Positions 13,801 through 45,455 of a stretch of 47,597 nt of DNA are shown here, one piece after another. The notes under the pieces are model-generated. The model was not told the origin of the DNA. It was given only the letters and a program-made list of their open reading frames with translations, and made no database searches. The translations under genes and the position numbers were made by a program. The DNA comes from a virus, in IMG/VR virus record IMGVR_UViG_3300047667_000608, positions 1-47,597 of that record; one strand, given 5' to 3'. Within the stretch, counting starts at the first letter, position 1; every line of letters starts with the position of its first letter.

Positions 13801-16800
13801 AGGCTGTTTCTGAGGCACTGCAGGGCGTCGGGGATGCTTTCGCGGGTATGACGCCTGACCTTGGTCGGTTCACGCGGGAAGGCGAAACGTTTAGTGGGAC
13901 GCTCACGCGTATCGTGGGGGACCTAGGCGCAGTCAACTTAATAATGGACACCCTTAGCCACACCCTACAGGACGCTTCAGTCATTGGGGCGGGCACCGCG
14001 TCAGATTTCGTGGCAATGTTCGGCGGCATCCAAGCTATGAACACGGCGACAACGGAGTTCTTCATGGGCTTTTACTCGGACGCAGAACGGTTCGCCACGG
14101 CATCACGTCAGATTGAGGCCCAATTCGCCGCACTGAATGTTTCGATGCCACGGAGCCGTACGGAATTCCGTGCAATGGTAGACGCTCTGGACCTAAACAC
14201 GCTTTCGGGTCGCCAGATGTACGCCAGTCTTGTTTCGATGTCGGGTGCCCTGAATAACGTGTTACCATTGGTCGCCGACTTCACAGCTGCGATGGAAACC
14301 ATGGTGGGTTCAATCACTACGGAAATCGACGTGATGATTGGTAACACAAGTAGTTCCATGCGAGCCAACGAACAGGCGGCGGCACTCTGGTACAACACGG
14401 CCACAACCCTACGCGAATTCATCGCTGACTTGCGTGGAACGTCATCTGAGCTCACCAGCGCAACACAGGCACGGGCATTCGCTGAGACCCGCTTCCAAGC
14501 CCTTCTTGCGGCAACGCTCGCTGGGGACAACGAAGCGGCGTCTAATCTGAGTGGCGCGGCTTCCACGTTGCTGAGTAACACACGAGCCACGGCGAACACG
14601 GCGCTCGAAGTTGCCCGTGCGGAAGCTCGTATCCTGAGCGACCTCCAGCTTGCTTCGGGGGTGTCCGACATCGAAGGTGCTCGTCATGATGCTGTCGCGG
14701 GTCTTCTCGGTCAGCAGGTCGAATTGCTTAATACGGTGCGCGACGCGATCAACAACGGCGACCCAATTTCACCGACTGACATTGATGGCTTAAACGCTCA
14801 ACTTGGTGCGTTGGAAGCGGCCATCGCAGAGGCTGAAATGATCAACTACGCGTTCCTCAAAGAGCGCATGAATGTCGCTGTTGACCTCGTCGCAGACGCG
14901 GACATTCCTGCAGCGCTACGCACTATGCTGGATAACGCTGCGACGGGCATTGTTGCGAACATAACGTACATTGCACGCGCGGAAGGCCTAACGCCTGATC
15001 TACGGTGGTTAGCGCTGACGTCGTCTTCGCAGCTTATCAAAACCATTGACCTCGTTGTAGGTAAAGAGCTCGACGCGAACACGTCTCGTATCGCGCTCAA
15101 TCAAGTCGGGTCACTGACCAAGACAGTCAACATGATTGTAGGCACAACCTTGAGCCCGATAGACAAGCGCATCGCCCTTGCGGGGTCGTCCGAGCTTGCA
15201 CGCGTGGTGAACGTGACTCTTGATTCCGGTTCAAACGATAACGCCATGCGTTTGGCCTTGGGTAACTTGGGGACATACGCGGTTGCGGTCCAAGCATCCC
15301 TGTCCGCATCAGAAGATGTTCGACAGATCGTATTCGGGGACGCAGGCCCATACGCAGCAATGGTAGAGGCGTCGTTCTCTGGTCTTTCCAACCACGCGCA
15401 GCGGGTATTGCTAGAACAGCAGGGCGATTACTCGGTCAGGGTTCTTGGCGTGTTGTTCAGTGGCATTTCGGCCCCTCTTAAAGCCCTGATGCTGAACGCC
15501 AACACAACAGCAATCCGGAACGTGACCGTCGCTGCTGTGCTTCCGAATTCCATGACAGACGAGCAGCGCGAACTATTGCTGGCTCAATCCCAAAGCCTCA
15601 CCAAGACAATAAATGGCATTCTTAATCTTGTCGGGTTTGGCCCTGATGAGTTGGCTATGCTTCGCAGTGAGGACGGGGTCGTGAACAACAAATGGCTTCG
15701 GGGCCACCTTGAGCTTATCGCTATGGGGCCTGATGAGTTGGCAATGCTTCGGATGCAGAATCAAACCCGCCGAAAGGACATCGTGGGCAACGTTGCTTTC
15801 CGCGACATGCAAGCTAATGACTGGAAGCTCTTCCATATGCGCTACGAGAAAAGCGGCAAGGACATCGTGGGCAACGTTGCTTTCCGCGACATGAAAGCTA
15901 ATGACTGGAAGCTCTTCCATATGCGCTACGAGAAAAGCGGCAAAGATATCCTCGGCAACGTGGCCTTCCGTGACATGTCAGTTAACGACTGGGCGCTGTT
16001 TCACATGGAGAACCAAGAATTCTACAAGTCCATTCTCGGCAACGTGGAATTCGAAGGTATGAACGGTGAAACTTGGAAGCTGTTCGACATGGAGGACGAA
16101 CGTTACGGCAAGGACATCGTGGGCAACGTTGCTTTCCGTGGTATGAGCGCTAATGACTGGAAGCTCTTCCATATGCGCTACGAGAAAAGCGGCAAGGATA
16201 TCATTGGTAACGTTGGTTTCCGTGACATGAGCCGAACAGACTGGGACCTGTTCTTTATGGAGGATGAAGACTACGTCAAGACGATTTCTGGTGACGTGAA
16301 CACAGCGTCTATCACCAAGAAAGATCAAGCGTTGTTGGACATGAGCAACCAACTTCGCGTCAAGACGATTTCTGGTGTGGTGAACCTGTCTTCTATCACC
16401 GCACAACAGCAAAAGTTCCTTGACGCTGTGTCTGGCAGTACAAGCGGCCAGATCACTCTGGGGGGTTCGTTCAAGTTCGATCCAGCAAGTGGGTTCTCGT
16501 CTTGGTTCAGTGATACAACTAAGACTAACATTAGTAACCCAATGACGGCCCTTAAGGAGTCCCTTACTGCCCTGTCCGACACGCTCCACGAACAGGCTGG
16601 AACCACACCAGAGAATCCGGATGCTGCTCGCTGGCAGAACCTTCTGGGTCTGGCTACGTCCGAGCGTGGAGACACGATGGCTCAGGCGAACAGGGTCATC
16701 GGGAACATCGAAACTCTTGAACGCAATACGGGCGTGTCCCTGCGCAACGGTTCGGAGGACGCACGGCTCGGCCTGAACGCAAACGGGGGCATAGATTACA

Positions 16801-23171: not shown

Positions 23172-24692
23172 TTAGTCTCCCACCTTTGTTTCGTCGTCCC
23201 ACGCCACAGCTTCGGCGCGGTCTTTTCCGTAATAACCCAGCACGGCCTCAGTCATACTGGTTTTCGCCACGAGGGCTTTGATGAACGATGCGTCCGTGGG
23301 GCACGACATGAAATCTATGTATCGCGGCTCCACTGATTGGTGCGCGGTTATGGTGCGCATTTCGGTCTGGGAACGGGTGTCCAAGGAGTACGTGTTCTCG
23401 TAGTACACCGTCAGGCTGCAAACCACGTCTTTCTTGTTGCCCGAAAGATCGTGGCCGTACTTTGTGCGGTCCAACTGGGCGATCATAACGCGGTGCTTCG
23501 GGTCGTTGTTGAACTTACGTTTTTCTTCTTCGACGTCCAGCCCCTCTGCGTCCATACGCTGTTTAGATCGGATGACGCAGGGACTGAAACCCTTTAGGGC
23601 CTCGATTAACATGTCCGCCGACGCGTTGTAGTGATAGAACACCACCGTTTTGGGTGAATTCTCCACGATGTCGATCACCCGTTGCAATTTCGGCAGGTTC
23701 TTCGGCTCCTCGATCGGGTGGATTTCCCCGTGCTCGTCGTACATGAAACCAGAGGCGATTTGCTGCTGTTTCATCATCTTGGTCATAACGTGTGCGGCTG
23801 AAACGGGTTCCCCACTGTCCAAGAACGTGACGAAATCCTCCTCCATTTCAGCATAGTGGGCTTTCTGCTTGGGCGTTAGGTCGAGCTTGTCTACGAAGAA
23901 CCGCGCCTTTGCGCCCTTAGCCCATACATCAAGCTTAGCCACAAAACTGCATTTTTCGAGGGCCTCTTTCAAGATGTGCTCATTCTTGACGCCCTTGGTG
24001 GACTTGCCCTTAAAACCCCCCATCTTACAGAATTTATTCCTAAATGCGTAAAAATTAACTCCCGAAAACTGGCGTATGGCACGCAACTGGGGGTAGAGGT
24101 CCTGTGGCCCCTGTGAATAAGGGAGGCCACTCAACAACCGGATGAATTTCGCGTCTTTCGCCATTTCACGGATCGCCATAGACGCAGGCGAAGTGTTGTT
24201 TTTGATCTTAATTGACTCGTCTAACACAAGCCCGAATTTTGGGACGTTGTTGAGGACGTTGAAAATCTTCTCGACTAAGTGCGTGTGCTGGAACACCTCA
24301 TAGTTGATCGAAAGATATCCCCCCTCCTTTTTAAATTTTGCTAGGGTCCTGTCGCACTGGGCACTATCGAACACGTGTATCGGCAGATTAAATCCGAACG
24401 TTTCGCCTTCGTTCTGCCACGCCTGCTTGTACGTATTAGGGGCCACGATCACGCCGTGGTTTATATCATAGTCGAACTTAAACAGGGCCATTTCATTCAG
24501 GGCCGTGGGCGTCTTGCCCATACGCATTTCGAGGAAATGGCCCCACCCGACTGCGGGACCTTTTCGTATGCTGCGATATTCTGCTTCGGCGTCAGGTCCG
24601 TCTAGTAACGCGTAGCCATAATACGACCTACGTAGGGCTTCGAGTTGCACCGGACGTGGGTCGCCTTTAAGCAGCCATTCAACCTCTTTCAC
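23172..24692 (-). CDS. SNF2/DEAD-type superfamily 2 helicase
   Basis: The 506-residue protein has motif I FLEMRMGKTPTALNE (residues about 53-67), motif Ia VIVAPNTYKQAW, motif II LVLDESIKIKN, motif III LLSGLPYSQGP, and the C-terminal RecA-like domain with VVFYHYNASADMLI and a TRSQTEMRTI arginine motif, all as in SNF2-like phage helicases. It probably remodels DNA in replication or recombination. GTG 24692 overlaps the datZ stop, which couples it to the Z cassette. DExx reads DES, and motif III has LSG-P in place of TGTP. Confidence 0.9.
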   Translation of the reverse strand: MKEVEWLLKGDPRPVQLEALRRSYYGYALLDGPDAEAEYRSIRKGPAVGWGHFLEMRMGKTPTALNEMALFKFDYDINHGVIVAPNTYKQAWQNEGETFGFNLPIHVFDSAQCDRTLAKFKKEGGYLSINYEVFQHTHLVEKIFNVLNNVPKFGLVLDESIKIKNNTSPASMAIREMAKDAKFIRLLSGLPYSQGPQDLYPQLRAIRQFSGVNFYAFRNKFCKMGGFKGKSTKGVKNEHILKEALEKCSFVAKLDVWAKGAKARFFVDKLDLTPKQKAHYAEMEEDFVTFLDSGEPVSAAHVMTKMMKQQQIASGFMYDEHGEIHPIEEPKNLPKLQRVIDIVENSPKTVVFYHYNASADMLIEALKGFSPCVIRSKQRMDAEGLDVEEEKRKFNNDPKHRVMIAQLDRTKYGHDLSGNKKDVVCSLTVYYENTYSLDTRSQTEMRTITAHQSVEPRYIDFMSCPTDASFIKALVAKTSMTEAVLGYYGKDRAEAVAWDDETKVGD

Positions 24693-25222
24693 AGGACCCC
24701 CTCCATTCCAGGATGTTCATGGACCGAAGCCAAAGCCTCATCCAGAAGTTCGCGAGGATCGAGGCCGTACCACTTGAACAGTCCCGCACTGGGGACTAGG
24801 TCGAGTTTATGGCGAAGGTCTTGAGCCACGGGGCCCTCGGGTCGGGCGTAGTAATTGCCGAAACGATGTTCTTCCTGCAAAAATTGGCGAGCCTCCAACC
24901 AGTCCACCATTTTTACGATGGCTTTCTTCTGGCAAGAGGGCAGCACATTCGGTTTGCCCTTGGACGGGGACGGGGCATCGCCTGTCATGGCCTCGTCTTC
25001 ATCATGTTCGAGCCATTCCTCCAATACCTGTGAGAACACTAACCAACTAATATTCAGATGGGGCTTGAGGAACATGAGGATCACGGCCCCACGTTGAATG
25101 TGGCCCCCCACGGTCTGTTTCTGGACTGTCGGAACCACGGCCCAACGGGGCACCGTGTTAACACGGAGCCCCATCGCCAGTTTCATCGTTTTGGTGTATG
25201 TAGAAATTGCGCTAGTGGACAT
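24689..25222 (-). CDS. datZ: DatZ: HD-domain dATP triphosphohydrolase
   Basis: The 177-residue protein has the YfbR-like HD pattern: PRWAVVPTVQKQTVGGHIQRG (His 41), LEHDEDEAMTGDAPSPSK (His 73, Asp 74, then the TGD.P loop) and a later Asp (about 107, KMVDWLEA). DatZ enzymes of Z-genome phages remove phosphates from dATP so that it is not used by the polymerase. The call rests on the HD motif and on direct coupling with mazZ and purZ; a general 5'-nucleotidase is the alternative. The start overlaps the mazZ stop as TAATG. Confidence 0.85.
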   Translation of the reverse strand: MSTSAISTYTKTMKLAMGLRVNTVPRWAVVPTVQKQTVGGHIQRGAVILMFLKPHLNISWLVFSQVLEEWLEHDEDEAMTGDAPSPSKGKPNVLPSCQKKAIVKMVDWLEARQFLQEEHRFGNYYARPEGPVAQDLRHKLDLVPSAGLFKWYGLDPRELLDEALASVHEHPGMEGVL

Positions 25223-25650
25223 TAGGTTTCCCCTGCTACTGGAGGGTTGTGTGGGACCATGCGGTGGCGCGGGGCCTCTGGGGGCTTTTCCCCCACGTGC
25301 GTGGAGGTAGCGCCAGCGTACGGCGGTGCAGCCGCTGAGGGCATGGGAAGGCTCAGTGAGCGCTCACTATTGAAACTGGGACGCGTCATGTGCAGAACTC
25401 GCATACCCAAGAGTAATGCCACATTGGCCACGTCGGCGGCTTCAACGGCGGCTTCGAACTGTCCCTCCTTTTCGAGGGCTGTTTTCAATTCAAGGATTTC
25501 AGCCTCCAACAACTTGAACTGGGCCCCTACGGTGGTGTTGTCCGCGAAGCCCTTGTGACGGTTGGTGTGGAGCTTTCGCACCATTAGCTCCATGAAGAAC
25601 TTAATCTCGGGCTCGTGTTCGAGCATTTCTTTGGGCAGGTGGATTTTCAT
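25222..25650 (-). CDS. mazZ: MazZ: MazG-like nucleotide pyrophosphohydrolase
   Basis: The 142-residue product has the MazG metal-binding pattern: LLEAEILELKTALE (residues 48-61) and EAADVAN (70-76). In Z-genome phages MazZ turns (d)GTP into (d)GMP, the substrate of PurZ. The C-terminal 50 residues are Pro/Ala-rich and probably disordered, an unusual addition. ATG 25650 overlaps the purZ stop (ATGA); an in-frame TTG at 25662 is less likely. A second pyrophosphohydrolase-like gene (27007-27381) lies in the same operon, so the division of labour is unsettled. Confidence 0.8.
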   Translation of the reverse strand: MKIHLPKEMLEHEPEIKFFMELMVRKLHTNRHKGFADNTTVGAQFKLLEAEILELKTALEKEGQFEAAVEAADVANVALLLGMRVLHMTRPSFNSERSLSLPMPSAAAPPYAGATSTHVGEKPPEAPRHRMVPHNPPVAGET

Positions 25651-26717
25651 AGTGTGTTCCAAACTCTTACGTCAGCGTTGCGGGGGCCGTGACCTGTCAG
25701 GATCAAGCTAGGGCGACGCCCGAGGACAAGACAATACGGCAAGAATAGTTTTTCGTGCACGAAATTAGCAATCGCATCACTTTTGGGGTCTTCGCTGATG
25801 TAGTTACAGAAGTTCAAGAACAGCACGTCGGGCTGGTTGACTTCGATGGCCTCCCTAAATTGGGCCCCCGACCATGTGAAAATGCGCCGCACTTTCTGGG
25901 TCACCGTGGTCAGCTCCGGTTCGAAGCCTAGGCCCTCCCAGCTGAGTTCTTTCTGGTCGGGGTACACAGGGCCCGAGTTGCCCGCCACGCGGATTGGGTA
26001 AGTGCGCAGCGACATGAAAGACCCCCGATAGTCCTTCGGGTGGACGCCCGCATCGGCCAAGCCTTGCTGGACACCACAATCACGGGACGTACAGAACGGG
26101 TAGAAGCCTTGGTTGATCCCGAGGCTGTGGCCCTGTGACACCTCAACGAAGACAGACTGGGCACGAGTGGGATAGGTGCCTTTCTTCAAGGAGTCTAGGG
26201 CCACGTTGTTTTTCGCAACAGCCCCCGAGTGACGCAATATTTTCCGCGTCATAGCGGCCCCCGTGCCCTTACCCGTGGACCCGATAAGACCGACCAGATT
26301 CTTCTGTTCGTATTCTAAATCCATGTCACCGACGACAGCGGCGGTAGGGTGAATCGCAACGCTTGGGTGGTACGCGTGGTCACGGACTTCTTGGATCAGT
26401 TTCGCAGGAGTGAGAACCGACCCAGCGTTCATCTGGATGCGCGTTCCGCTGTAACCCAGCTTATGGAGGTGAACGCCTGCAGTCGGTAATTGGGTCAGGA
26501 TGATTTTTTCGTCCCCGAAGTATGACGTGTGCCCACTGTTCGGACCCGCACTGCTGGTCACGGTGTCAATACGCCCCTCAGACGCTTCGGCGATTACAGC
26601 GGCTAGGAGCCCCTTGCCCGTGGACCCGAATTGCCCGTCCATAAGGACCGTGGCACCCTTGCCCGATAGCAACCCAGTCTTAATGATTGCGTCTTTGGTG
26701 TCTTGTCTCGAATTCAT
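25647..26717 (-). CDS. purZ: PurZ: adenylosuccinate synthetase-like dZ synthesis enzyme
   Basis: The 356-residue enzyme is clearly of the PurA family, with the glycine-rich loop GQFGSTGKG (residues 28-36), SSAGPNSGHTSYF, LPTAGVHLHK and GSTGKGTGAA. In PurA the loop reads GDEGKGK and its Asp is catalytic; here Ser stands at that place, a hallmark of viral PurZ, which joins aspartate to dGMP on the way to dZTP (2-amino-dATP). At about 356 residues it is shorter than bacterial PurA (about 430). ATG 26717 follows GGAGAACGG and overlaps the upstream stop. Confidence 0.92.
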   Translation of the reverse strand: MNSRQDTKDAIIKTGLLSGKGATVLMDGQFGSTGKGLLAAVIAEASEGRIDTVTSSAGPNSGHTSYFGDEKIILTQLPTAGVHLHKLGYSGTRIQMNAGSVLTPAKLIQEVRDHAYHPSVAIHPTAAVVGDMDLEYEQKNLVGLIGSTGKGTGAAMTRKILRHSGAVAKNNVALDSLKKGTYPTRAQSVFVEVSQGHSLGINQGFYPFCTSRDCGVQQGLADAGVHPKDYRGSFMSLRTYPIRVAGNSGPVYPDQKELSWEGLGFEPELTTVTQKVRRIFTWSGAQFREAIEVNQPDVLFLNFCNYISEDPKSDAIANFVHEKLFLPYCLVLGRRPSLILTGHGPRNADVRVWNTL

Positions 26718-27010
26718 GTCCGTTCTCCAGTTAGAATGAGAAACGCAGGGACGTCCCACGTTTGAGTTGGTTGGTTTTTAGCGTGACACACGAGAACTCG
26801 GCCATCTTCTTCTATGAAAGCCGACCTGAATGCAGCCTCAGTCCATGAAGGCTCGTCGCACACTAAGAGTTGTTGTCCGTTGTATCCCGACATCGAAAAT
26901 GACCCAAGTGCCGTGGGTAACACGAACGCGGGCCCAATCGAATCCACCATTTTGGCCAGTTTAGTAGACTTGCCCGATTGTCTTGGGCCCAGAATGTACA
27001 AAGTGATCAT
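26714..27010 (-). CDS. Small P-loop NTPase coupled to purZ
   Basis: The 98-residue protein opens with a Walker A (LYILGPRQSGKSTKLAK, residues 4-20) and has a Walker B-like LLVCDEPSW near 48-56. It is too short for a full nucleoside monophosphate kinase and has no visible LID. It overlaps both neighbours (ATGA at each end), so it is made with PurZ and the upstream hydrolase. It could be a minimal regulatory ATPase. Function is not known. Confidence 0.7.
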   Translation of the reverse strand: MITLYILGPRQSGKSTKLAKMVDSIGPAFVLPTALGSFSMSGYNGQQLLVCDEPSWTEAAFRSAFIEEDGRVLVCHAKNQPTQTWDVPAFLILTGERT

Positions 27011-27381
27011 GTCCGTTCTCCTTTGTGGCGATCGTCTTCGCCCGTTTGTCTAGCCTCGTATGCTATCAACATCATAACACATGCGCCCATGTGCCACAAG
27101 TGTGACATTTTCGTCTCGTCGTCAAGGTCCCCGAAAGCAAAACTAACGGACGTAGGCGCGGAACCACCCCACCACGCCCAACCGTGGCGCATCGCAGCCC
27201 CGAAGACACGGCCCCATTTCATGCCCTCTTCCCAGTTGCGCTCACCATATTTAGCGGCCCCCGTACCGAGGGCTAGAGCCGTACCGAACAGAGCCTCCGG
27301 TGGGATCAATTCTAGGCGGGCCTTACCCGTGTCGTCCTTACGCCCTGCCATGGCAGTTGAAGTCGAGTTTTTCGAGGTCAT
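27007..27381 (-). CDS. dATP/dGTP pyrophosphohydrolase-like protein (DUF5664)
   Basis: The 124-residue product shows the family pattern RKDDTGKARLELIPPEALFG, followed by GAAKYGERNWEEGMKWGRVFGAAMRHGWAWW and then DDETKMSHLWHMGACVMML. This all-alpha family is annotated as dATP/dGTP diphosphohydrolase in phages. In this operon it may lower dATP or supply dGMP. ATG 27381 follows AAAGGA; the gene overlaps the nuclease gene upstream by 44 bp, and ATG 27351 is an alternative start that also overlaps. Confidence 0.75.
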   Translation of the reverse strand: MTSKNSTSTAMAGRKDDTGKARLELIPPEALFGTALALGTGAAKYGERNWEEGMKWGRVFGAAMRHGWAWWGGSAPTSVSFAFGDLDDETKMSHLWHMGACVMMLIAYEARQTGEDDRHKGERT

Positions 27382-27781
27382 ATCCTAGTCCTTTCGTGTA
27401 TGGGACCCATTGGCCGTCGTCTGGATTAAAATGGGAACTATTCGGGTCAAACAGCGCAAATTCGGAATCGAGTACCTTATCCCCGCCACCTCGGATGATA
27501 CCAAGGTAAACACGGTTATCAGCCCCGCCATTCATGTAATTCTCAGCGTACTCCAGTTGCTTCTCTTCCATCGGGTTCTGGATTGTGAACTTCCACGTGG
27601 GGCGGTGCTTCACTTCGATCAGGTGGAGCCCGATGATTGGGTACGCGCACACCAGATCGGGTGGCCCCTTTACCCATTCATTGTTCCATCGTTCACAGAA
27701 GCCGCCTTGCTTCCGGTAGCTGTTCACGATTACTTTCTGATACTTAAGCTCTTGTTGGCGGATTTTCGATGGGGCCTTCAT
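27338..27781 (-). CDS. PD-(D/E)XK-like nuclease
   Basis: The 147-residue protein has a nuclease-like core: CERWNNEWVKGPPDLVCAYP supplies Asp, and GLHLIEVKHRP supplies the ExK pair, as in PD-(D/E)XK resolvases and VRR-type nucleases. The rest of the sequence (EEKQLEYAENYMNGGADNRVYLGIIRGG) fits the helix-strand end of that fold. It could resolve replication intermediates. It overlaps neighbours on both sides. Confidence 0.65.
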   Translation of the reverse strand: MKAPSKIRQQELKYQKVIVNSYRKQGGFCERWNNEWVKGPPDLVCAYPIIGLHLIEVKHRPTWKFTIQNPMEEKQLEYAENYMNGGADNRVYLGIIRGGGDKVLDSEFALFDPNSSHFNPDDGQWVPYTKGLGYDLEKLDFNCHGRA

Positions 27782-28029
27782 ATTTCAGACATCCTTTCGA
27801 TTGCTGCCTCGTCGTAGGCCGTGAATTCCTGCAAGTCGTTCTTTTTACAGAGCCAGTCCTTCACCTTGATGACGTGGGTGTCCTCGCCATCTGGCGTCAC
27901 AATGCTTTGGGAAATAGGAAACCACAGGGGCCCAGCCCAATAATAGGACTGAAACATGAACGCTCTCGCCGTTCGTACCGTGATTATGCCCTCGAAAGTG
28001 CTCCAAGTGTCAACGCGGTTATACGCCAT
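27778..28029 (-). CDS. Small protein, unknown
   Basis: The 83-residue product is probably a beta-rich fold (FEGIITVRTARAFMFQSYYW, HVIKVKDWLC) with an acidic C-terminal helix (AYDEAAIERMSEI). It overlaps the nuclease start as ATGA and the upstream gene by 11 bp. No family is recognised; the C-terminal region lacks motifs. Confidence 0.55.
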   Translation of the reverse strand: MAYNRVDTWSTFEGIITVRTARAFMFQSYYWAGPLWFPISQSIVTPDGEDTHVIKVKDWLCKKNDLQEFTAYDEAAIERMSEI

Positions 28030-28321
28030 CGTCGATCACCTCGCCGCCTTCGTAGTAAGTACCCTGCTCAAGGGACTGCAGCATCTTGATGATTTCGTCC
28101 CGTCCGTAAACGGCCTTTTCGCGGTTCACGTTGGCTTTATTGGCGCAGGGCCAGAAGTTGACTTGGTTCCCCTTGACGATGGCCTGCACGTGCCATGGTG
28201 AAGCCTCGTAATTAGGCCACGTGTACTCAAGGTCCAACAGCTTGGCCAACGACAAGAAAGCGTCCACGTGGATGCGGTGCGAGGGTTTGTTCGGGTTAAT
28301 GTAGTGGGTCTTGTTTGACAT
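28019..28321 (-). CDS. Small protein, unknown
   Basis: The 100-residue product starts at ATG 28321 after GGAGG; an in-frame TTG four codons upstream is part of that ribosome site. It contains HVDAFLSLAKLLDLEYTWPNYEAS and a VKGNQVNFWPCANKANVNRE segment, and ends acidic. The pattern suggests a small mixed alpha/beta protein. No family is recognised. Confidence 0.55.
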   Translation of the reverse strand: MSNKTHYINPNKPSHRIHVDAFLSLAKLLDLEYTWPNYEASPWHVQAIVKGNQVNFWPCANKANVNREKAVYGRDEIIKMLQSLEQGTYYEGGEVIDDGV

Positions 28322-28322
28322 T

Positions 28323-28694
28323 TCAGCCTCCAAAATGGTCTAGGGTTTCTTGGTCGAAAATCGGCGTGTCAACCTCGGTTGTGCGTTTCCCCGACTTGAA
28401 CTTTTGGTTGCGTTTGTGCGTCACCATCTGCAAGTGCGCCGGATTAACGCACAAACGGTTTTCACATCGGTGGTCGATTTGTTTCTTGGGCGGAATGTAC
28501 CCATGCACTTGGGTCCACATTACCCGATGCACGGCCACGGTGCCCCCGTCGAGAGACATACGCGGGTAGCCACCGCCCCTTCCCGTGCCACTGTGACCCC
28601 CTTGCCAGACCCAGCAGGGCGACGGTAGGGGCCCTTCGATTTCCAAGGTTGTTAGGGCCACCTTGGCATAGATTGCTGAAATTCGGGCACTCAT
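28323..28694 (-). CDS. HNH endonuclease
   Basis: The 123-residue protein has the phage HNH pattern: PCWVWQGG, then YPRMSLDGGTVAVHRVMW, and PKKQIDHRCENRLCVNPAHLQMV supplying the His-Asn-His core and Cys residues. It could be a homing-type or replication-linked nickase. ATG 28694 overlaps the polymerase stop (ATGA) and lacks its own ribosome site, so it is translated by coupling. Its place between polymerase and the Z cassette raises the question whether it cuts Z-DNA or only unmodified DNA. Confidence 0.85.
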   Translation of the reverse strand: MSARISAIYAKVALTTLEIEGPLPSPCWVWQGGHSGTGRGGGYPRMSLDGGTVAVHRVMWTQVHGYIPPKKQIDHRCENRLCVNPAHLQMVTHKRNQKFKSGKRTTEVDTPIFDQETLDHFGG

Positions 28695-30640
28695 GATTTG
28701 GCCTCGATCTTTGCGACGGTTTCGGCACCGAAAGATGCCACTGCCCAATCCGGACCCTCGAAACCCTCGGACACGAAAGGCACCCGCAAGTTGAACGGTG
28801 CGCCTTGGACATCTTCCATTATCGCATCCAACTGTGCCAGAAGCGCCTTGGCCTCGGGGGTGTCTTCGCGCTGCCCGTTGAATGAGTCATGAACAGTCAT
28901 CAAAATTTGTACAATGTCCCCGTTCTCCTCACAGAGCCGATCCATTTCGAGCAGCTTGTATTTCACGATGTCCGCGTTGGACCCTTGGATGATCTTGGAC
29001 GTGCCCCTGTAAGCGAAGCGCCGATCCTCAAGGCGACACTTGCGGCCCAGAAGCGTGTATACGAAACCTCGGTTAAGCAGTCGGGCTTTGGCCTTGTTCT
29101 GAAACGCGCGGACCTCGGGGAACTCATTGAACCATGCGCGGTGGGCCTTGGTTGCCCTGTCTAGGTCCCAATTCATGTGACCCGCGAAGGATTTGGCCTG
29201 CATCCCTGTGAAAATCCCCATGTTCATGCGTTTCGCGGTAGGGTCACGCTCGACGTTTAGCAGGTCCGCAACGACTTGGTGCGCGTCGCGGAAGGGCTTA
29301 GCGTTGTACCCCTCCGTTAGGTTAGCGTCACCAGAGTAATGCGCGAAAAGGCGCGGCTCACATTGTGACCAGTCACGCTCCCAGAAGATCATATCGTCAT
29401 CGGGGATGAACAACTTGCGGAACGGGATCGCAAGGCTCTTGTCGCGCTTCGGGACTTGCTGCAGGTTGGGGTTGTTACACGAGAAACGCCCAGAAATCGT
29501 GCCCTTGTCGTCGGACTTGAGCTGGTTCAGGGTGGGGTGCACGCGGCCTTTGAACATGTGACGTTCTTCAAGTGGCGTGATGAAACTGTTCACCAGCGTA
29601 ATCGCACGACGAATGTCGATGATTTTGCGCCCAGCCTCGGTGGTTTTCAGCCATCTTTCGGCGAACGAGGGGTTACCTTTTTCAGTGATCGGGTAGTCTG
29701 TTTCACCCACGTCATCGAAGTAAGCCTTGAGCATCTTAGGTGAATTGACGTTGAACCCCACGTGAATCGCGTTCACCATACGTTCAATCTCTTGCTCGGT
29801 TTTCCGCTTGAGCACGGCGATGGCGTCCTTGTCCACCTTGGTGCCCTTGCGCTCCATCCGGAACACTGTCCATATCAGGTCGCTTTCGAGCTCCGTCACT
29901 ACTTCAATCCCTTCCTCTTCGACCGCCTTACGGGCCTCGAAATAAGACTGGAGCGTTGAGACCCCATCGCCAATAGCATAGTCATAACCAATGGGGTCAA
30001 CGCCCGACAGACGCCAATAGTTACTCATCTGTTTTCTGTTGTCGGCTCCGCCGAAAAGCTTGGCCAAGTGCGCATAGAGCTCTTCGCCTTTTTTCGCCTC
30101 GACCCCGAAACTCTCCGAAACTGCGCTCAGGCTGAAACTGCGCCGATACTCGTCCAATAACGCGGCGATGTCTTGGGTATCAGCGAGGCGGTGACCCAAC
30201 ATGATTCCAGCGTTGGCTGAAAAGTGTGCGTCGAATTTGATGTGGTGGCCCACGACACGATCTTCACGTTCGGGGTCCTGCCATTTTTCGTCTCGTTCAG
30301 CGAAAGCTTTGGCTAGGGCAATCTCGAAATCGTGCACCTGCCACTCGCCATCGGGTTCCGTCATAGGCCGACCGCCCATAAGATTCCCACCCCCTCCGTG
30401 GCGCACGGGGACATATACCACGTCCTGCGCGGCTATACACATACCCCGCCATGTGCCCACAGTGCCACCCTGCGCACCGTCTGCGGGTGGCGTGGCCGTA
30501 CGGGGCGCACCCACCACATACCCTATGGGGACGTTTACGCGCCAGTCCAATCCGGTGGTCTCGGTGTCGTACGAGAGGAATTTGGCCTCGCGAACCATGC
30601 GCAGGGCCCGTTCGGCGTTGTCAGCTACGTCAATAATCAT
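28691..30640 (-). CDS. dpoZ: Family A DNA polymerase with 3'-5' exonuclease (DpoZ type)
   Basis: The 649-residue protein has Exo I (FLSYDTETTG, Asp 25/Glu 27), Exo II (GHHIKFDAHF, Asp 137) and Exo III (YAIGDGVSTL, Asp 225). Polymerase motif A is ERDWSQCEPR (Asp 423), motif B RDPTAKRMNMGIFTGM (465-480), and motif C TVHDSFNG (584-586 HDS). Motif C normally reads HDE; Ser replaces Glu. Motif A has CEPR where IELR is common. In Z-genome phages DpoZ copies with dZTP. The gene shares an operon with purZ, which supports the dpoZ label; general PolA is the alternative. Confidence 0.85.
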   Translation of the reverse strand: MIIDVADNAERALRMVREAKFLSYDTETTGLDWRVNVPIGYVVGAPRTATPPADGAQGGTVGTWRGMCIAAQDVVYVPVRHGGGGNLMGGRPMTEPDGEWQVHDFEIALAKAFAERDEKWQDPEREDRVVGHHIKFDAHFSANAGIMLGHRLADTQDIAALLDEYRRSFSLSAVSESFGVEAKKGEELYAHLAKLFGGADNRKQMSNYWRLSGVDPIGYDYAIGDGVSTLQSYFEARKAVEEEGIEVVTELESDLIWTVFRMERKGTKVDKDAIAVLKRKTEQEIERMVNAIHVGFNVNSPKMLKAYFDDVGETDYPITEKGNPSFAERWLKTTEAGRKIIDIRRAITLVNSFITPLEERHMFKGRVHPTLNQLKSDDKGTISGRFSCNNPNLQQVPKRDKSLAIPFRKLFIPDDDMIFWERDWSQCEPRLFAHYSGDANLTEGYNAKPFRDAHQVVADLLNVERDPTAKRMNMGIFTGMQAKSFAGHMNWDLDRATKAHRAWFNEFPEVRAFQNKAKARLLNRGFVYTLLGRKCRLEDRRFAYRGTSKIIQGSNADIVKYKLLEMDRLCEENGDIVQILMTVHDSFNGQREDTPEAKALLAQLDAIMEDVQGAPFNLRVPFVSEGFEGPDWAVASFGAETVAKIEAKS

Positions 30641-36800: not shown

Positions 36801-37162
36801 GTGGCTCGGGAAATGAGATAAAAGGTTCTATTCACAACGACAGAAACCACAGTGCCTCCAAGCACCTGCTCTCGTCTGGACACGAGGATTTTGGTGGGCC
36901 GTACTGTTTTCATCACGTGGCCCAGTTCCCCATTGTTGGCCACGATACACCCCCTCTGGCACAGTTCTTCACGTAGGGTATCTCCTGATATGAACAGCCC
37001 CGCAGGGGTGACGTGGTAGTCTAGGTCCACTTCCCAAAAAGGGCCGATGTACCAGCCACGCTCCAGCACGTCCAGCCACGCCCTACGGAAGACGTGAGCA
37101 CGCAACCAAATTCGCTCACGTTGATCACGAGCTTTACAGCGGTACGTGAGTTTCGACAACAT
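36797..37162 (-). CDS. Unknown basic protein downstream of primase
   Basis: The 121-residue product has a basic N-terminus (LSKLTYRCKARDQRERIWLRAHVFRRAW) and a beta-rich rest (VDLDYHVTPAGLFISGD, GTVVSVVVNRTFYLI). It overlaps the primase stop as TGATG, so it is coupled to it. No family is recognised. Confidence 0.55.
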   Translation of the reverse strand: MLSKLTYRCKARDQRERIWLRAHVFRRAWLDVLERGWYIGPFWEVDLDYHVTPAGLFISGDTLREELCQRGCIVANNGELGHVMKTVRPTKILVSRREQVLGGTVVSVVVNRTFYLISRAT

Positions 37163-39576
37163 CAGAACTCGTCCTTTTGGGTAAGGTCGTAGTCGTGGGT
37201 CGCTTCGTCAACTCGGAACCCGAACTTGGTGTCTAGGTATTGTTCTACGTCCTTGCGCGAAGGAAAATCCGACACTCGGACGCGGTGATTTGTGATGCCA
37301 TCGTTCGTTTCTTCTTTGTACCGGATGCGGTGGACTTCGTTTTTGGTAACCCGAAGGATGCCGCGTCGTTTCAGCTCGTCTTTCAGCTGCTGCGCGTTGT
37401 ATGCGGGTGTAGACCCGACGACCCCACGTTTTCGGCGGTATGCCTCGTACGCCTCTTCCAGACGGGTATAACTAATGTGCGTCGGCCAGTCGTCCGTAAC
37501 TTTGATGAAGTGACCCAGATTGTCTTTCTTGAAGGCTGCGGGTACACCGTCGCGCGAGTTCATGGAGTCGAAAGGAGATTCACTGTTGATGATCTGCATC
37601 AAGAAGTCATCTAACCCGCGCTGGGAGTGCTGGGACAGGTTGCGCTTCATTTGGGTTTCGAGTGGTATCCGGATATCGGCTTCGTCGTACTCATAATCGA
37701 TCAGATAGCGATGCAGCTTAGATAGGTTCTCGACGTGGGGCTTGTTGTGTTCTAGCTCGGCCCATTCGTAGATTGGCCCCCAGAAGTTCTGTTTCTCTTG
37801 GGCAGTAGCACGGGGGTCTTGGGTTGCGTAGACATTGAGGGTTTCGAGGACTGTGAAGCGGCGATCGTCGTTGCCGTCTAAGATGGCTAGCGCGTCGTCG
37901 TATTCATTTGATGTGAAAGAGTACCTAGCGTAATCGGGCTGCTGGTACGCGTTAATCCCCTTGGGTTCGATCCGCCTCATTTCGTCCGTGATCATAGACT
38001 TCAGACGCATGGCGTCGGCTTTGCGTCGGGAGTTAGTAGCCTCGTCGCACTGCACCAGAAGCATACACCCACTGTCGGCGTTAAAGTTACCCACGAGGCT
38101 TTCAAGCGTGTTAGTGGCCATGGAGTGATTTCGACCAATGATGGGCCGTAGGAACTTGGCCCCTAGCATTGACTTGCCTGATCCAGGCTTCCCGATCAGC
38201 GCCAGCGCCGTACCCGATTTACGGTGAGGCTTTTGAAACATGTCCGCGATCCAAGCCAAGACCCAGTGGTATCGGGCCGTGTCCTGTTGCGCTAGGATTT
38301 CCCACACGTACGTTAGGAATGGCTGCACGTCGGCTTTCGTTACTTCGTCTTCGTGTGGCGGTATGTCGTGGCCCTGCCACTGGTTGACCCATAGGCCTCC
38401 ATGTTCTTCGACCAACTTTTCGGTGGTGCGGGGGTCGAAAGTGAACCCCTCCACCCTGATCGCCCGTGACGAGGCTAACAAGAGTCCCACCATAGATGTC
38501 TTACCCGAAGGCCCCTGCACGTACTTATGCATGTAACTGTTGCGAAAGTCGTTCACGGTCATGATGGACACGGCGTTCCGGTCACCAGCTTTTTCCAGAT
38601 CGATCACGTTGGACGTGTTGTTGCGCACAGCGTACCGCGACATAAAGTCATCGAGTTCCACCAGCGCGGGGGTGTCGGCCATTAGCGTGTACAGCAAGGC
38701 GATGATTTCTTTGTCGCCCGTGATCTTCTCAATCGTTGACGCACCCGAAACTGGGTCGCCTGCTTCGGCCTTGTCCCATGTTTTCTCGAACGTCCGTATG
38801 CGCATCTGTTCGTCGGCCTCGTCGTCGTTCGCGATGGTCATGACGGTGCGCAGAATATCCAGCGCCTCGGCTTTACCAAAGTATAGACCGGACGTTGACC
38901 CCATGTCTTCGATGTGCTGGCACGCACGGAACAGGAACCCAGAGAACGCCATACATAGGCTGTTTCGTGACCCCTCGTTCCAGTACTCGGCGATCTTAGC
39001 TGCCACGCAGGCGAAGCGCACCCCGTTCACGACCCGCATAAGGTCCGTGGCCACAGGCGTCACATTCGCCCCGTGGATATCGTCCCATTCATACTCCTCA
39101 CCCGAGGGGTGTAATGACCCAGGAAGTAGTGAGTACTGGCCCGACTTCATTTCACCGCCACGCACCTCGACTTTCAGATTTTCATCGGCTTCGAGCACTT
39201 GCAGGAATGGAAAATCGCGCGGGTGAAACGCGGGGGTACTGGGAGACAACACGACCTCGTAGAAGCGATGCGTGCGGGGTCGAGACTTCCTGCCCCAGAT
39301 GTGCGGGGTGAACGGCAGCATCAGGTCCAACGCTTCCATCAGTAGGGGGTTGTCGGTGTCGATGTCCACGTCCAGCGAATTGCCGAACAGGTGTACACCC
39401 AAATTGTCGGTGTTTCGGCTCAACTCGTAAATGATGGCCTCGGACTTGGTCTTCGTGTTGGAACGTGGGTCCCAACGCATGTGTCCAGGGTCTTTCTGTC
39501 CGCGTGGTGTCCGTACCGCAAACGAACTGATTGATTTCAGTAGATCAATCGATACTTTTCTGTGTAATTCGCTCAT
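37162..39576 (-). CDS. PrimPol-helicase (primase-polymerase with SF3/AAA helicase)
   Basis: The 804-residue protein has an N-terminal PrimPol-like domain: GVHLFGNSLDVDIDTDN with the D.D pair (about 39350-39370) and VEVRGGEMKSGQYSLLPGSLHPSG. The C-terminal helicase has Walker A ALIGKPGSGKSML (about 38170-38200) and Walker B CMLLVQCDEATNS, followed by FTSNEYDDALAI, as in D5/P4-type helicases. It primes and unwinds for replication. ATG 39576 with GAGG is chosen; a GTG at 39603 lies in the -10 box of the promoter and cannot be in the message. Confidence 0.88.
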   Translation of the reverse strand: MSELHRKVSIDLLKSISSFAVRTPRGQKDPGHMRWDPRSNTKTKSEAIIYELSRNTDNLGVHLFGNSLDVDIDTDNPLLMEALDLMLPFTPHIWGRKSRPRTHRFYEVVLSPSTPAFHPRDFPFLQVLEADENLKVEVRGGEMKSGQYSLLPGSLHPSGEEYEWDDIHGANVTPVATDLMRVVNGVRFACVAAKIAEYWNEGSRNSLCMAFSGFLFRACQHIEDMGSTSGLYFGKAEALDILRTVMTIANDDEADEQMRIRTFEKTWDKAEAGDPVSGASTIEKITGDKEIIALLYTLMADTPALVELDDFMSRYAVRNNTSNVIDLEKAGDRNAVSIMTVNDFRNSYMHKYVQGPSGKTSMVGLLLASSRAIRVEGFTFDPRTTEKLVEEHGGLWVNQWQGHDIPPHEDEVTKADVQPFLTYVWEILAQQDTARYHWVLAWIADMFQKPHRKSGTALALIGKPGSGKSMLGAKFLRPIIGRNHSMATNTLESLVGNFNADSGCMLLVQCDEATNSRRKADAMRLKSMITDEMRRIEPKGINAYQQPDYARYSFTSNEYDDALAILDGNDDRRFTVLETLNVYATQDPRATAQEKQNFWGPIYEWAELEHNKPHVENLSKLHRYLIDYEYDEADIRIPLETQMKRNLSQHSQRGLDDFLMQIINSESPFDSMNSRDGVPAAFKKDNLGHFIKVTDDWPTHISYTRLEEAYEAYRRKRGVVGSTPAYNAQQLKDELKRRGILRVTKNEVHRIRYKEETNDGITNHRVRVSDFPSRKDVEQYLDTKFGFRVDEATHDYDLTQKDEF

Positions 39577-39601
39577 GCTGTCCTCATGTTTGTCCTCAGA
39601 C

Positions 39602-39631
39602 ACCGTAGCACGGGCAGCGCCACGGTGTCAA
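39602..39631 (-). promoter_or_regulatory. Leftward promoter with flanking inverted repeat
   Basis: On the - strand TTGACA (39631-39626) and TACGGT (39607-39602) are 18 bp apart. ACACCGT and ACGGTGT form a 7-bp inverted repeat spanning the spacer and both boxes, a likely operator. It drives the PrimPol-helicase gene. Confidence 0.7.
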
Positions 39632-42382: not shown

Positions 42383-42435
42383 GTCACAGTCGGGTAACGG
42401 GGTCGTGATTTTGCTGTAACACGGTGTGAGGGGGG
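42383..42435. promoter_or_regulatory. Recurring operator-like element, copy G
   Basis: This copy holds GTCACAG near its left end, GGTAACGG and TCGTGATT in the middle, and CTGTAACAC at 42414-42422 in inverted orientation, between divergent promoters. It is the most diverged of seven copies. Confidence 0.5.
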
Positions 42436-42464
42436 TTGACCCTCGGGGGCCATCGTGTTATGGT
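42436..42464 (+). promoter_or_regulatory. Rightward promoter (TTGACC-17-TATGGT)
   Basis: TTGACC (42436-42441) and TATGGT (42459-42464) are 17 bp apart and preceded by the operator-like element. It drives the small gene at 42500. Confidence 0.7.
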
Positions 42465-42499
42465 GGTGTACGGGATATTTCGTCCCACAGGAGACTATC

Positions 42500-42685
42500 A
42501 TGGCCGACCAGACTGACACCATAGCACTATTGGAAAAAATGGAGGCTGCACGGGCGGCTGGAGACTACGTGGACTGCGCGATCGGCCACCAGATCACCCG
42601 TGCGATCGCTGACGCGGGGGGTGCGCCATGGTGCGGTGATGCTGCCGATCGGCTGCACGCCTTGAAATGGTGGATGGTAGACTAG
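42500..42685 (+). CDS. Small orphan protein
   Basis: The 61-residue product starts at ATG 42500 after AGGAGA (42489-42494). It is helical (LLEKMEAARAAGDYVDCAIGHQITRAIADAGG) and ends with WCGDAADRLHALKWWMVD. No family is recognised. It is one of several single-gene rightward units with near-identical leader sequences at this end. Confidence 0.6.
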   Translation: MADQTDTIALLEKMEAARAAGDYVDCAIGHQITRAIADAGGAPWCGDAADRLHALKWWMVD

Positions 42686-42701
42686 CCAGCCCCGCGTGGG
42701 C

Positions 42702-42748
42702 CCGTGTTACAGCGCGATCACGGGCCCGTTACCTCGTGTTACAGTGGG
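42702..42748. promoter_or_regulatory. Recurring operator-like element, copy F
   Basis: Two direct GTGTTACAG sites flank a centre with GATCACGG and CCCGTTACC. The downstream site ends a few bases before the -35 box of the rightward promoter at 42749. Confidence 0.6.
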
Positions 42749-42777
42749 TTGCATTGACGGGCCCGCCGTGTTAGACT
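42749..42777 (+). promoter_or_regulatory. Rightward promoter (TTGCAT-17-TAGACT)
   Basis: TTGCAT (42749-42754) and TAGACT (42772-42777) are 17 bp apart; the spacer ends in GCCGTGT. An overlapping TTGACG has poor spacing. It serves the gene at 42812. Confidence 0.6.
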
Positions 42778-42811
42778 GGACCTAGGGCAATCAAGCCCGA
42801 TGGAGACCGAA

Positions 42812-42973
42812 ATGACCACCCCACATCGCCCATGCCACGTACCTTCCCACGCTGATTACTACCCTGCAACCGAGGATTGGGCCGGACTGGGACACGTGCA
42901 CGAAATGTGGGCGTGGGACGATGCCGAAGGCGTACCCCGTTCGACCGTGCTGGTCGATGGGTTCTGGGTCTAG
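42812..42973 (+). CDS. Short orphan protein, 53 residues
   Basis: ATG 42812 follows TGGAGACC with good spacing. The product begins MTTPHRPCHVPSHADYYPAT and goes on with an acidic, Trp-containing segment (EDWAGLGHVHEMWAWDDAEG) and a strand VPRSTVLVDGFWV. It has its own promoter. No family is recognised. Confidence 0.6.
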   Translation: MTTPHRPCHVPSHADYYPATEDWAGLGHVHEMWAWDDAEGVPRSTVLVDGFWV

Positions 42974-42985
42974 GCCCTTCCCGAT

Positions 42986-43005
42986 ACAACTGGGACGTGT
43001 GTGCG
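42986..43005. repeat. 20-bp direct repeat, left copy
   Basis: The sequence ACAACTGGGACGTGTGTGCG recurs exactly at 43499-43518. The two copies bound a gene-free block of about 490 bp. Confidence 0.9.
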
Positions 43006-43498
43006 AAAACCCCCTAGGATAGCGCGGCCTGATTACAGTGGCTGGAAAGTATCTAGTAGTATAGTGGACTGGCGGTCACCCTGCTGGCCACCCTATGGCC
43101 CGTGGCCACCCTATAGCATGACCGTTAGCGCTAACATTGGAGACTGTTGGGGGGTGACCCAAGGGGCAATGGGAGGTAATGCTGGCCAATGATAGCGCTA
43201 ACAGGACACCCAGAGCGAGTGGCCCAAGAGGTAGAGTGACCGCATAGAGTGACCGATAGTGGGGTATACTAGTCTAGGGCACGTGGACACGGGGACCCAA
43301 GCATAGGTCGAATACTGCCGCTGGCCACCCTACCACCCACCCCCAAAAAAAGAGAGAGGGAGAGAGGGGGGAGTATAACCTCCTTAAACCCCCTACGGAC
43401 GGGGCGGGGTGGGCCCACAGGGTGGTAGGGTGGCCACCCTGCCTATCAGGCCACCACGCCCCACCCCATGTGTTGCTTTCGTGCCACATGTCCATAAC
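43006..43498. other. Gene-free block, candidate replication origin
   Basis: No credible gene lies here. The block holds TGGCCACCCT four times (43085, 43103, 43322, 43431), the palindrome GTTAGCGCTAAC (43124-43135) with a second TAGCGCTAAC (43193-43202), TAGAGTGACCG twice at 13-bp spacing (43232, 43245), a perfect 17-bp inverted repeat (43322-43338 with 43420-43436), and an A/G-only run at 43345-43372. Such iterons, palindromes and strand-asymmetric tracts are usual at replication origins. Packaging or recombination functions are possible too. Confidence 0.55.
43322..43436. repeat. 17-bp inverted repeat around a polypurine run
   Basis: TGGCCACCCTACCACCC (43322-43338) is the exact reverse complement of 43420-43436, with 81 bp between. 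The interior includes an uninterrupted A/G tract and a C-rich end. A further palindrome AGGGTGGCCACCCT (43427-43440) overlaps the right arm. Such a structure could extrude a cruciform or serve as a protein-binding pair. Confidence 0.85.
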
Positions 43499-43518
43499 AC
43501 AACTGGGACGTGTGTGCG
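43499..43518. repeat. 20-bp direct repeat, right copy
   Basis: This is an exact copy of 42986-43005. It ends 9 bp before the stop of the leftward gene at 43527. Confidence 0.9.
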
Positions 43519-43526
43519 GCTGTTTC

Positions 43527-43790
43527 TTAAACGAACTCGTTATACCAGTCGAACGCGCTTTGCTCAGCTTCGGCCAGCGTGTCCTTTCCCACGGGGGCAT
43601 ACCACCATGCAACCGCCCAAAACTTGCCGTCCATTTCAAATAGGTAGCAGGTTTCGGCGTATTGGAACAGCGGGGCCCCAACGAACTCGGGCATGTCGGC
43701 GTAGAAGCTCTCTGACTCAGAATCCACGGGCGCAGTGGCCTCCTTGCGGGATGCGACGAAGGCTTCACGGGTGATTGGTGGAAGGTTCAT
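43527..43790 (-). CDS. Small orphan protein
   Basis: The 87-residue product starts at ATG 43790 after AGGAGAC. It contains an acidic, aromatic-rich segment (DSESESFYADMPEFVGAPLFQYAETCYLFEMDGKFWAVAWWYAP) and a short helix. No family is recognised. The promoter at 43826-43854 serves it. Confidence 0.6.
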   Translation of the reverse strand: MNLPPITREAFVASRKEATAPVDSESESFYADMPEFVGAPLFQYAETCYLFEMDGKFWAVAWWYAPVGKDTLAEAEQSAFDWYNEFV

Positions 43791-43825
43791 GGTAGTCTCC
43801 TATGGGGCGTTATTGCCCTATGACT

Positions 43826-43854
43826 ATTGTAACACGGGGCGCAAATGGGCGCAA
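43826..43854 (-). promoter_or_regulatory. Leftward promoter (TTGCGC-17-TACAAT)
   Basis: On the - strand TTGCGC (43854-43849) and TACAAT (43831-43826) are 17 bp apart with the spacer ending CCGTGT; GTGTTACA overlaps the -10 box. It lies between the genes starting at 43790 and ending at 43862. Confidence 0.7.
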
Positions 43855-43861
43855 TCCCCTA

Positions 43862-44137
43862 TTACGCTTGGGTGAAATGCGTCAGGGCCTCGGCTCTCAG
43901 TCTGGTCCGGTCGCATGCCCACCATACCTTCGACCCAGAAGGCAACGCTGATATAATGGCCTCGCATGACGGAAACAGCACGTAGAAATGCCACCAGAGC
44001 GCGTCGAGGTCTTCATCCTCCAGAAGCTCGATCATCGTCAGTCCCTGTGGTATTCCCTGCCGAACGGCCACTGCGTTCCAGACAGCCAGTTGGGTGGAAC
44101 CCGATTTCAGTCGGAGGACTTCTACAGCAGTGATCAT
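43862..44137 (-). CDS. Small orphan protein
   Basis: The 91-residue product has a helical N-terminus (MITAVEVLRLKSGSTQLAVWNAVAV), an acidic helix (MIELLEDEDLDALWWHFYVLF) and basic end (TRLRAEALTHF). It overlaps the upstream stop as ATGA. No family is recognised. Confidence 0.55.
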   Translation of the reverse strand: MITAVEVLRLKSGSTQLAVWNAVAVRQGIPQGLTMIELLEDEDLDALWWHFYVLFPSCEAIISALPSGSKVWWACDRTRLRAEALTHFTQA

Positions 44138-44570: not shown

Positions 44571-44619
44571 GGAATATCTCCTAGGTGGGTTGGGAGGGGG
44601 ACCGAAGCCCCCCATGCGA

Positions 44620-45324: not shown

Positions 45325-45369
45325 TGGTCGTCTCCTGATTGGGGCCGCATCGTGCCGCCCTGTACCACC

Positions 45370-45454: not shown

Positions 45455-45455
45455 G

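What the first reader, a model, noticed from the sequence alone, without database searches (positions are those of the whole stretch)
24689..30640. Complete Z-genome (2-aminoadenine) cassette
Seen: coupled purZ, mazZ-like and HD-domain datZ genes, with a family A polymerase with exonuclease in the same operon. Established: in Z-genome phages (S-2L, phiVC8, SH-Ab 15497 groups) PurZ, MazZ, DatZ and DpoZ together replace adenine by 2-aminoadenine. Inference: the virion DNA here carries Z in place of A, giving three hydrogen bonds per pair and resistance to many restriction enzymes. This is the strongest candidate in the window for a special system.
Basis: partly seen in the sequence, partly recalled or inferred. 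Interest (0 to 1): 0.88.

Follow-up and report, generated by a model that had tools for sequence, protein, structure and literature searches.

The report
Phage 2-aminoadenine genome cassette, divergent polymerase
This uncultured phage carries the full gene set that known phages use to replace adenine with 2-aminoadenine in their DNA, and its DNA polymerase belongs to a little-studied branch with a different active-site residue, which gives a concrete new test of how such polymerases prefer the unusual base.

Summary
On the minus strand lie a polymerase A with 3'-5' exonuclease (28691-30640), PurZ (true start probably ATG 26717), a MazZ-2-type pyrophosphohydrolase and a DatZ-like HD hydrolase, in the published Z-cluster order purZ-mazZ-datZ. 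PurZ has the diagnostic Ser (GSTGKG) and falls inside the PurZ clade, away from PurA. The cassette is known in kind. Its nearest named relative is Ochrobactrum phage vB_OspP_OH, already listed in the Z-cluster literature. What is less ordinary is the polymerase. It belongs to a fully supported 'OH-like' clade that, wherever the contig is long enough, always sits beside purZ. It lacks two of the three insertions that define phiVC8-like DpoZ. At the E. coli Pol I Tyr766 site, conserved in 45 of 47 purZ-free PolA sampled, it has Thr; both described DpoZ groups have Phe. The clade forms a ladder at this site: basal members keep Tyr, derived ones have Thr. A stand-alone DUF5664 gene (homologous to a dATP/dGTP hydrolase) sits one small gene upstream of purZ. 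Z-DNA has not been shown for this virus or, in the papers I could read, for OH. New variant of a known kind.

The parts
28691..30640 (-). family A DNA polymerase with 3'-5' exonuclease, OH-like DpoZ branch; M474, T478, S548 at the E. coli Pol I F762/Y766/N845 sites, E428 (E710) kept
29207..29209 (-). codon for Thr478, equivalent of E. coli Pol I Tyr766 (phiVC8 DpoZ F459)
28323..28748 (-). HNH endonuclease overlapping the polymerase 3' end, probably a mobile insertion; real start may be ATG 28694
27338..27781 (-). VRR-NUC-like nuclease gene of the conserved run
   Evidence: phrog_93; orthologues in L024, L104, L002
27007..27381 (-). stand-alone DUF5664 (PF18909) protein, putative extra dATP/dGTP pyrophosphohydrolase
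   Evidence: activity of the Wayne homologue in PMC12884076
26714..27010 (-). small P-loop-like ORF between DUF5664 and purZ, function unknown
   Evidence: weak AAA hits only
25647..26717 (-). purZ, succino-aminodeoxyadenylate synthase, ATG start overlapping the upstream stop (ATGA); ORF extends to GTG 26759
25222..25650 (-). mazZ (MazZ-2 type), MazG-like (d)GTP pyrophosphohydrolase, with a non-conserved C-terminal tail of about 45 residues
24689..25222 (-). datZ-like HD phosphohydrolase (putative dATP triphosphohydrolase)
23172..24692 (-). SNF2-type helicase, next gene of the conserved run, coupled start
37162..39603 (-). PrimPol/primase-helicase (possible second polymerase of the replisome)
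   Evidence: orthologues in L002, L024 and OH p22

Best explanation
This is the replication and base-replacement module of a phage whose DNA most likely carries 2-aminoadenine (Z) in place of adenine. Proposed path: MazZ-2 (perhaps helped by DUF5664) cuts dGTP to dGMP. PurZ joins dGMP to aspartate. Host PurB and host kinases finish dZTP. DatZ (and perhaps DUF5664) removes dATP. The linked PolA copies the genome using dZTP. Shown here: the genes, their order and coupling, their family placement and intact catalytic residues, and strict purZ linkage of this polymerase branch. Inferred from homologues: every enzymatic activity. Further inference: because the polymerase replaces the Tyr that pairs with Glu710 in ordinary PolA, as phiVC8-like and Wayne-like DpoZ also do but with Phe, I think it loosens the closed state so that weaker A:T ends go to the exonuclease more often than Z:T ends. 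Confidence is about 0.9 for a working Z-genome pathway, 0.7 that the polymerase itself prefers dZTP, and 0.35 for the Glu710-Tyr766 mechanism.
For: PurZ: NCBIfam PurZ 223.5 bits far above PurA models; best solved matches are the phiVC8-group synthetase entries (6fm1 and relatives) and S-2L PurZ 7odx; PurZ-clade placement with full support and GSTGKG Ser. MazZ: E=1e-11 to OH MazZ-2, four acidic metal-site residues E55/E58/E74/D77 invariant in 18 proteins, predicted MazG/HisE-like helical fold. DatZ: S-2L metal ligands H34/H66/D67/D119 and phosphate ligands R19/K81/K116 all have counterparts (H41/H73/D74/D107, R26/K88/K104), model matches the YfbR/OxsA/DatZ fold at Z about 10. Polymerase: best PDB match phiVC8 DpoZ 7pbk; OH-like clade 100/100 in two careful trees made without the signature columns; of the OH-like polymerases fetched by polymerase search alone, every one has purZ nearby except L039, whose contig is 6.3 kb. 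Linkage: synteny with OH, L002, L024, L104. Tyr766 site: Y in 45 of 47 purZ-free PolA; F in 19 of 19 phiVC8/SH-Ab-like; T23/N2/S1/Y1 in the OH-like set.
Against: No biochemistry or nucleoside analysis exists for this virus, and none was found for OH. PurZ and polymerase scores are below the curated NCBIfam cut-offs (300 and 500 bits), so these are divergent members. Basal OH-like polymerases beside purZ keep Tyr766 and Asn845 (L052, L131, L134, L135, L171), and contigs L125, L153, L163 pair purZ with ordinary-looking PolA, so the Tyr change is not required for purZ linkage. Window DatZ has GGH where the other 18 proteins aligned have A/E before the metal His. The DatZ model is only moderate (pLDDT 74), and OxsA and YfbR tie with DatZ.
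Confidence: 0.88

Rival explanations
1. The phage makes Z-DNA, but the polymerase does not discriminate. As in S-2L, adenine is kept out only by clearing dATP (DatZ and DUF5664), and the Thr478/Ser548 changes merely let the enzyme tolerate Z:T pairs.
For: Insertions 2 and 3 of phiVC8 DpoZ are absent. S-2L uses a non-selective PrimPol plus DatZ (PMC8065100). A PrimPol gene is also present. Basal clade members beside purZ keep Tyr766/Asn845. The window has an extra dATP/dGTP-hydrolase-type gene.
Against: All members of this polymerase branch on long enough contigs carry purZ; the conserved site is altered in the crown, as in both proven selective DpoZ groups; the exonuclease needed for the proposed selection is intact.
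Confidence: 0.25
2. Only partial replacement: the set makes some dZTP, and virion DNA is a mix of A and Z.
For: Expressing the S-2L Z-cluster in E. coli converted a significant amount, not all, of the adenine (PMC8342488); window DatZ is divergent with a GGH motif.
Against: Synteny and intact catalytic residues in all four genes suggest selection on the full pathway; described Z-phages with this set have complete replacement (PMC12884076 abstract).
Confidence: 0.12
3. Ordinary nucleotide-salvage cassette: PurA-like enzyme, 5'-nucleotidase and pyrophosphatase recycling host purines, no Z (the reading given for OH in PMC7139368).
For: The OH paper reads the homologous three genes as nucleotide salvage.
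Against: PurZ clade placement, Ser in place of Asp, purZ-mazZ-datZ order and linkage to a dedicated PolA branch.
Confidence: 0.03

Closest known systems
Ochrobactrum phage vB_OspP_OH (Wolominvirus OH) Z-cluster
   Same: same order pol-(small ORFs)-nuclease-purZ-mazZ-2-datZ-helicase; PurZ 43%, polymerase 38%, helicase 34% identity; MazZ-2 of OH named in PMC8342488
   Different: podovirus against a genome with a tape-measure tail here; window has stand-alone DUF5664 and an HNH insertion; OH has Ser, window Thr, at the Tyr766 site
phiVC8 / SH-Ab 15497 type Z-phages (PurZ, MazZ, DatZ, DpoZ-2)
   Same: same four functions, PurZ clade, shared PolA superclade, insertion-1-like loop
   Different: polymerase lacks insertions 2 and 3; signature sites M-T-S instead of L-F-G; SH-Ab MazZ is a DUF5664-DUF550 fusion (PMC12884076), here DUF5664 and MazZ-2 are separate genes
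Cyanophage S-2L Z-cluster
   Same: adjacent purZ-mazZ-datZ triad
   Different: S-2L has MazZ-1 and no DpoZ, only a PrimPol
Wayne-type phages (PurZ0, DpoZ-1, DutZ, DmtZ)
   Same: 2-aminoadenine pathway, DUF5664 present in Wayne
   Different: PurZ0 with GSEAKG, Dut-like/NDT enzymes instead of DatZ/MazZ, separate PolA branch

Membership tests
PurZ | catalytic Asp of PurA replaced by Ser in the GDEGKG loop | tested here: met
   Ser46 in FGSTGKG; E. coli PurA WGDEGKG in the same alignment
PurZ | falls in the PurZ clade, not with PurA | tested here: met
   OH-like PurZ 100/100 inside PurZ; PurA outgroup of two sequences
PurZ | uses dGMP as substrate | not testable with these tools
   needs enzyme assay
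PurZ | NCBIfam curated cut-off of 300 bits (a naming threshold, not a biochemical feature) | tested here: not met
   223.5 bits over positions 37-308, still the best of all models
MazZ-2 | four acidic metal-site residues and location between purZ and datZ | tested here: met
   E55, E58, E74, D77 invariant; gene order
MazZ-2 | all-alpha NTP pyrophosphatase fold | tested here: inconclusive
   Foldseek E>0.3 but list led by AF_0060, MazG and HisE proteins; VIA Z 11.4 for 2p06, 8.0 for MazG 1vmg
DatZ | HD metal ligands and phosphate-binding residues of S-2L DatZ | tested here: met
   H41, H73, D74, D107, R26, K88, K104 (against PMC8065100)
DatZ | Ile22 that excludes the 2-amino group | tested here: inconclusive
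   aligned residue is Val29, conservative but smaller
phiVC8-like DpoZ | three insertions in palm/fingers | tested here: not met
   insertion-1-like loop present, insertions 2 and 3 absent by alignment
phiVC8-like DpoZ | L455, F459, G548 | tested here: not met
   M474, T478, S548 instead
DpoZ in the broad sense (PurZ-linked PolA selective for dZTP) | strict linkage to purZ | tested here: met
DpoZ in the broad sense (PurZ-linked PolA selective for dZTP) | one clade with phiVC8-like DpoZ, purZ-free PolA outside | tested here: inconclusive
   joined at 93/76; separated by purZ-free PolA at 99/92; one clade not rejected, AU p 0.085
DpoZ in the broad sense (PurZ-linked PolA selective for dZTP) | prefers dZTP over dATP | not testable with these tools
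   needs primer-extension assay

The most novel reading that the evidence does not exclude
The OH-like polymerases are a separate solution to Z-over-A selection. Within one purZ-linked clade the near-universal PolA Tyr (E. coli Y766) was replaced by Thr/Ser/Asn independently of the Phe found in both described DpoZ groups, without insertions 2 and 3, so loss of the Tyr766-Glu710 contact is a common route to Z preference. Living basal members that still have Tyr preserve the before-and-after states.
Probability: 0.4. Interest if true: 0.75.

Novelty: new variant of a known kind. Interest (0 to 1): 0.52.

Why it matters
What makes DpoZ prefer 2-aminoadenine is unsolved: PMC8599892 found no single determinant and noted that the only substitution shared by both described DpoZ groups is Tyr to Phe at this helix O position. 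A branch with Thr at that position, no insertions 2 and 3, and close relatives that keep Tyr turns the question into a small set of assays. It would also help in engineering polymerases for Z-DNA. The stand-alone DUF5664 beside MazZ-2 and DatZ adds a combination not described in the survey I could read (PMC12884076).

Tried and rejected
PurZ as ordinary PurA: rejected by tree and residues. MazZ by library HMMs: no hit; settled by blastp to OH/ZP6 MazZ-2 and motif. Profile hit of alignment A4 to DatZ 6zpa was discarded as evidence because A4 contains S-2L DatZ itself. phiJL001 PolA, the known purZ-free relative of phiVC8 DpoZ, was not held under two accessions; Queuovirinae-like PolA were used instead. 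Polymerase search patterns contain the F762 site, which biases the M count; the PurZ-anchored sample was used as the unbiased check. tRNA scan: none. Claim that the two DpoZ lineages are certainly independent: dropped, since the trees disagree.
Full report
OBSERVATION. The window is a single virus record of 47,597 bases. A 126-base exact direct repeat joins positions 26-151 and 47472-47597, so it is probably a complete genome of about 47.4 kb. It has portal, terminase and tape-measure genes on the plus strand, so I read it as a tailed phage with a long tail. The finding lies in a minus-strand run. Reading downstream: polymerase A (28691-30640), HNH gene, three small ORFs including a VRR-NUC-like one, a DUF5664 gene (27007-27381), a small P-loop-like ORF, purZ, a MazG-like gene, an HD gene and a SNF2-type helicase. 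Several junctions are translationally coupled: the ATG candidates for purZ (26717) and mazZ (25650), and the GTG of the helicase (24692), overlap the preceding stop by coordinates. I therefore take ATG 26717 and ATG 25650 as starts rather than the longer ORFs.

PURZ. The protein scores 223.5 bits with the NCBI PurZ model, against 122.5 for the archaeal-type PurA model and 75.3 for TIGR00184. This is below the PurZ cut-off of 300, so it is divergent. The best solved structures are the group of phage synthetase entries 6fm1/6fko (6fm1 is phiVC8 PurZ according to PMC8342488), then S-2L PurZ. The diagnostic Ser is there (FGSTGKG; PurA has WGDEGKG). Of 53 columns invariant in twelve PurZ, two differ (Pro178 to Ser, Pro240 to His), and both also vary in relatives. 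In a careful tree the window PurZ sits with OH, L002, L024 and L041 in a clade of support 100/100, inside PurZ, with two PurA as outgroup.

MAZZ AND DATZ. The mazZ product had no library hit. It matches OH p33 (E=1e-11), and its L002 homologue matches the MazZ-2 of phage ZP6. E55, E58, E74 and D77 are invariant in 18 proteins, in line with the four acidic residues reported for MazZ-2 in PMC8342488. A predicted model (pLDDT 83) is led by AF_0060, MazG and HisE proteins, with weak Foldseek E-values. The HD protein matches DatZ families weakly (phrog_7076, 2e-10; 6zpa, 0.0013), but all metal and phosphate ligands listed for S-2L DatZ in PMC8065100 are kept. Its model fits the YfbR/OxsA/DatZ fold at Z about 10, tied among them. 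Oddities are Val for Ile22 and GGH for the usual AEH.

EXTRA HYDROLASE. The DUF5664 gene is a stand-alone copy. The Wayne homologue turns dATP, dGTP and dUTP into monophosphates, and in purZ phages this domain is often fused to DUF550 (PMC12884076). Stand-alone copies also occur in L002 (53% identity) and directly before purZ in L110, L115, L121 and L123.

RELATIVES. Gene order is shared with OH, L002, L024 and L104. A polymerase-only search of IMG/VR returned a block of OH-like polymerases at 35% identity or more, and then a drop to about 28-30%. Each block member carries purZ close by, except L039, a 6.3 kb contig. Four purZ-free Queuovirinae-like or similar records were searched whole and have no purZ.

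POLYMERASE. Two careful trees, built without the signature columns, give the OH-like polymerases 100/100 support. Their relation to phiVC8/SH-Ab DpoZ is unsettled: 99/92 for purZ-free PolA lying between, 93/76 for a joint clade, and AU p 0.085. At the E. coli Pol I sites F762/Y766/N845 the window has M474/T478/S548. Counts at Y766 in the first alignment: purZ-free Y45 F2; phiVC8 plus SH-Ab F19; OH-like T23 N2 S1 Y1; PurZ0-linked Y4 F2. In the PurZ-anchored sample I count T21, F31, Y7 among 59. Within the OH-like tree the basal rows read L-Y-N, then M-N-N, Q-T-N and finally M-T-S. Glu710 and the four exonuclease residues are kept. Insertions 2 and 3 of phiVC8 DpoZ (PMC8599892) are missing; the loop at insertion 1 is present, but it also occurs in purZ-free relatives.

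MECHANISM. The pathway MazZ, PurZ, host PurB and kinases, dZTP, with DatZ clearing dATP, follows from the published homologues. For the polymerase, PMC4882331 describes Tyr766 and Glu710 as a hydrogen-bonded pair that shapes the nascent base-pair pocket, with alanine changes lowering fidelity. PMC8599892 proposes that DpoZ sends weak A:T ends to its exonuclease. Replacing Tyr by Thr, or by Phe, would remove or alter that contact. This is inference; the basal Tyr-bearing members show that the change is not needed for a polymerase beside purZ.

VERDICT. A real, probably functional Z-genome module of the PurZ/MazZ-2/DatZ type, new as a member. Its polymerase branch is a variant not described in the papers I could read. 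The Pezo 2021 Science paper was not available to me, so prior notice of this branch cannot be excluded.

Noticed in passing
window 42414-47399: CGTGTTACAG occurs 14 times here (up to one mismatch), often as pairs about 30 bases apart in repeats D2/D3 near promoter-like sequence; 15 in the whole window against 2.8 expected. Looks like a phage operator or promoter element of an early region.
   Followed up: partly
window 26-151 and 47472-47597: Exact 126-base terminal direct repeat, so the record is probably a complete genome.
   Followed up: partly
window 15690-16424: Tandem 84-base (28-residue) repeats inside the tape-measure gene.
   Followed up: no
window 3-839: First ORF has a NusG-type domain (PF02357, 6.6e-9), unusual as a phage gene.
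   Followed up: no
window 28323-28748: HNH gene overlaps the polymerase 3' end and is the only part of the region with nucleotide similarity (about 70%) to named phages, mostly Pseudomonas; likely recently mobile.
   Followed up: partly
L178:1-11793: An OH-like Z-cluster with M-T-S polymerase sits on a contig of a Candidatus Gottesmanbacteria MAG; either a mis-binned phage contig or a Z-phage of a CPR bacterium.
   Followed up: no
L125, L153, L163: Viral contigs of 111, 161 and 47 kb have purZ with an ordinary-looking PolA (Tyr766, Asn845) and no MazZ or DatZ found in the held flanks; how they exclude adenine, if they do, is open.
   Followed up: no
L029, L036, L117, L122: OH-like phages with purZ and MazZ-2 but no detectable DatZ in the held sequence; a replacement enzyme may be present.
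   Followed up: no
L030, L031, L052, L131, L178: MazZ-like genes with altered metal motif (for example ELMDQANF); in L052, L131 and L178 they are about 260 residues long with a C-terminal extension.
   Followed up: no
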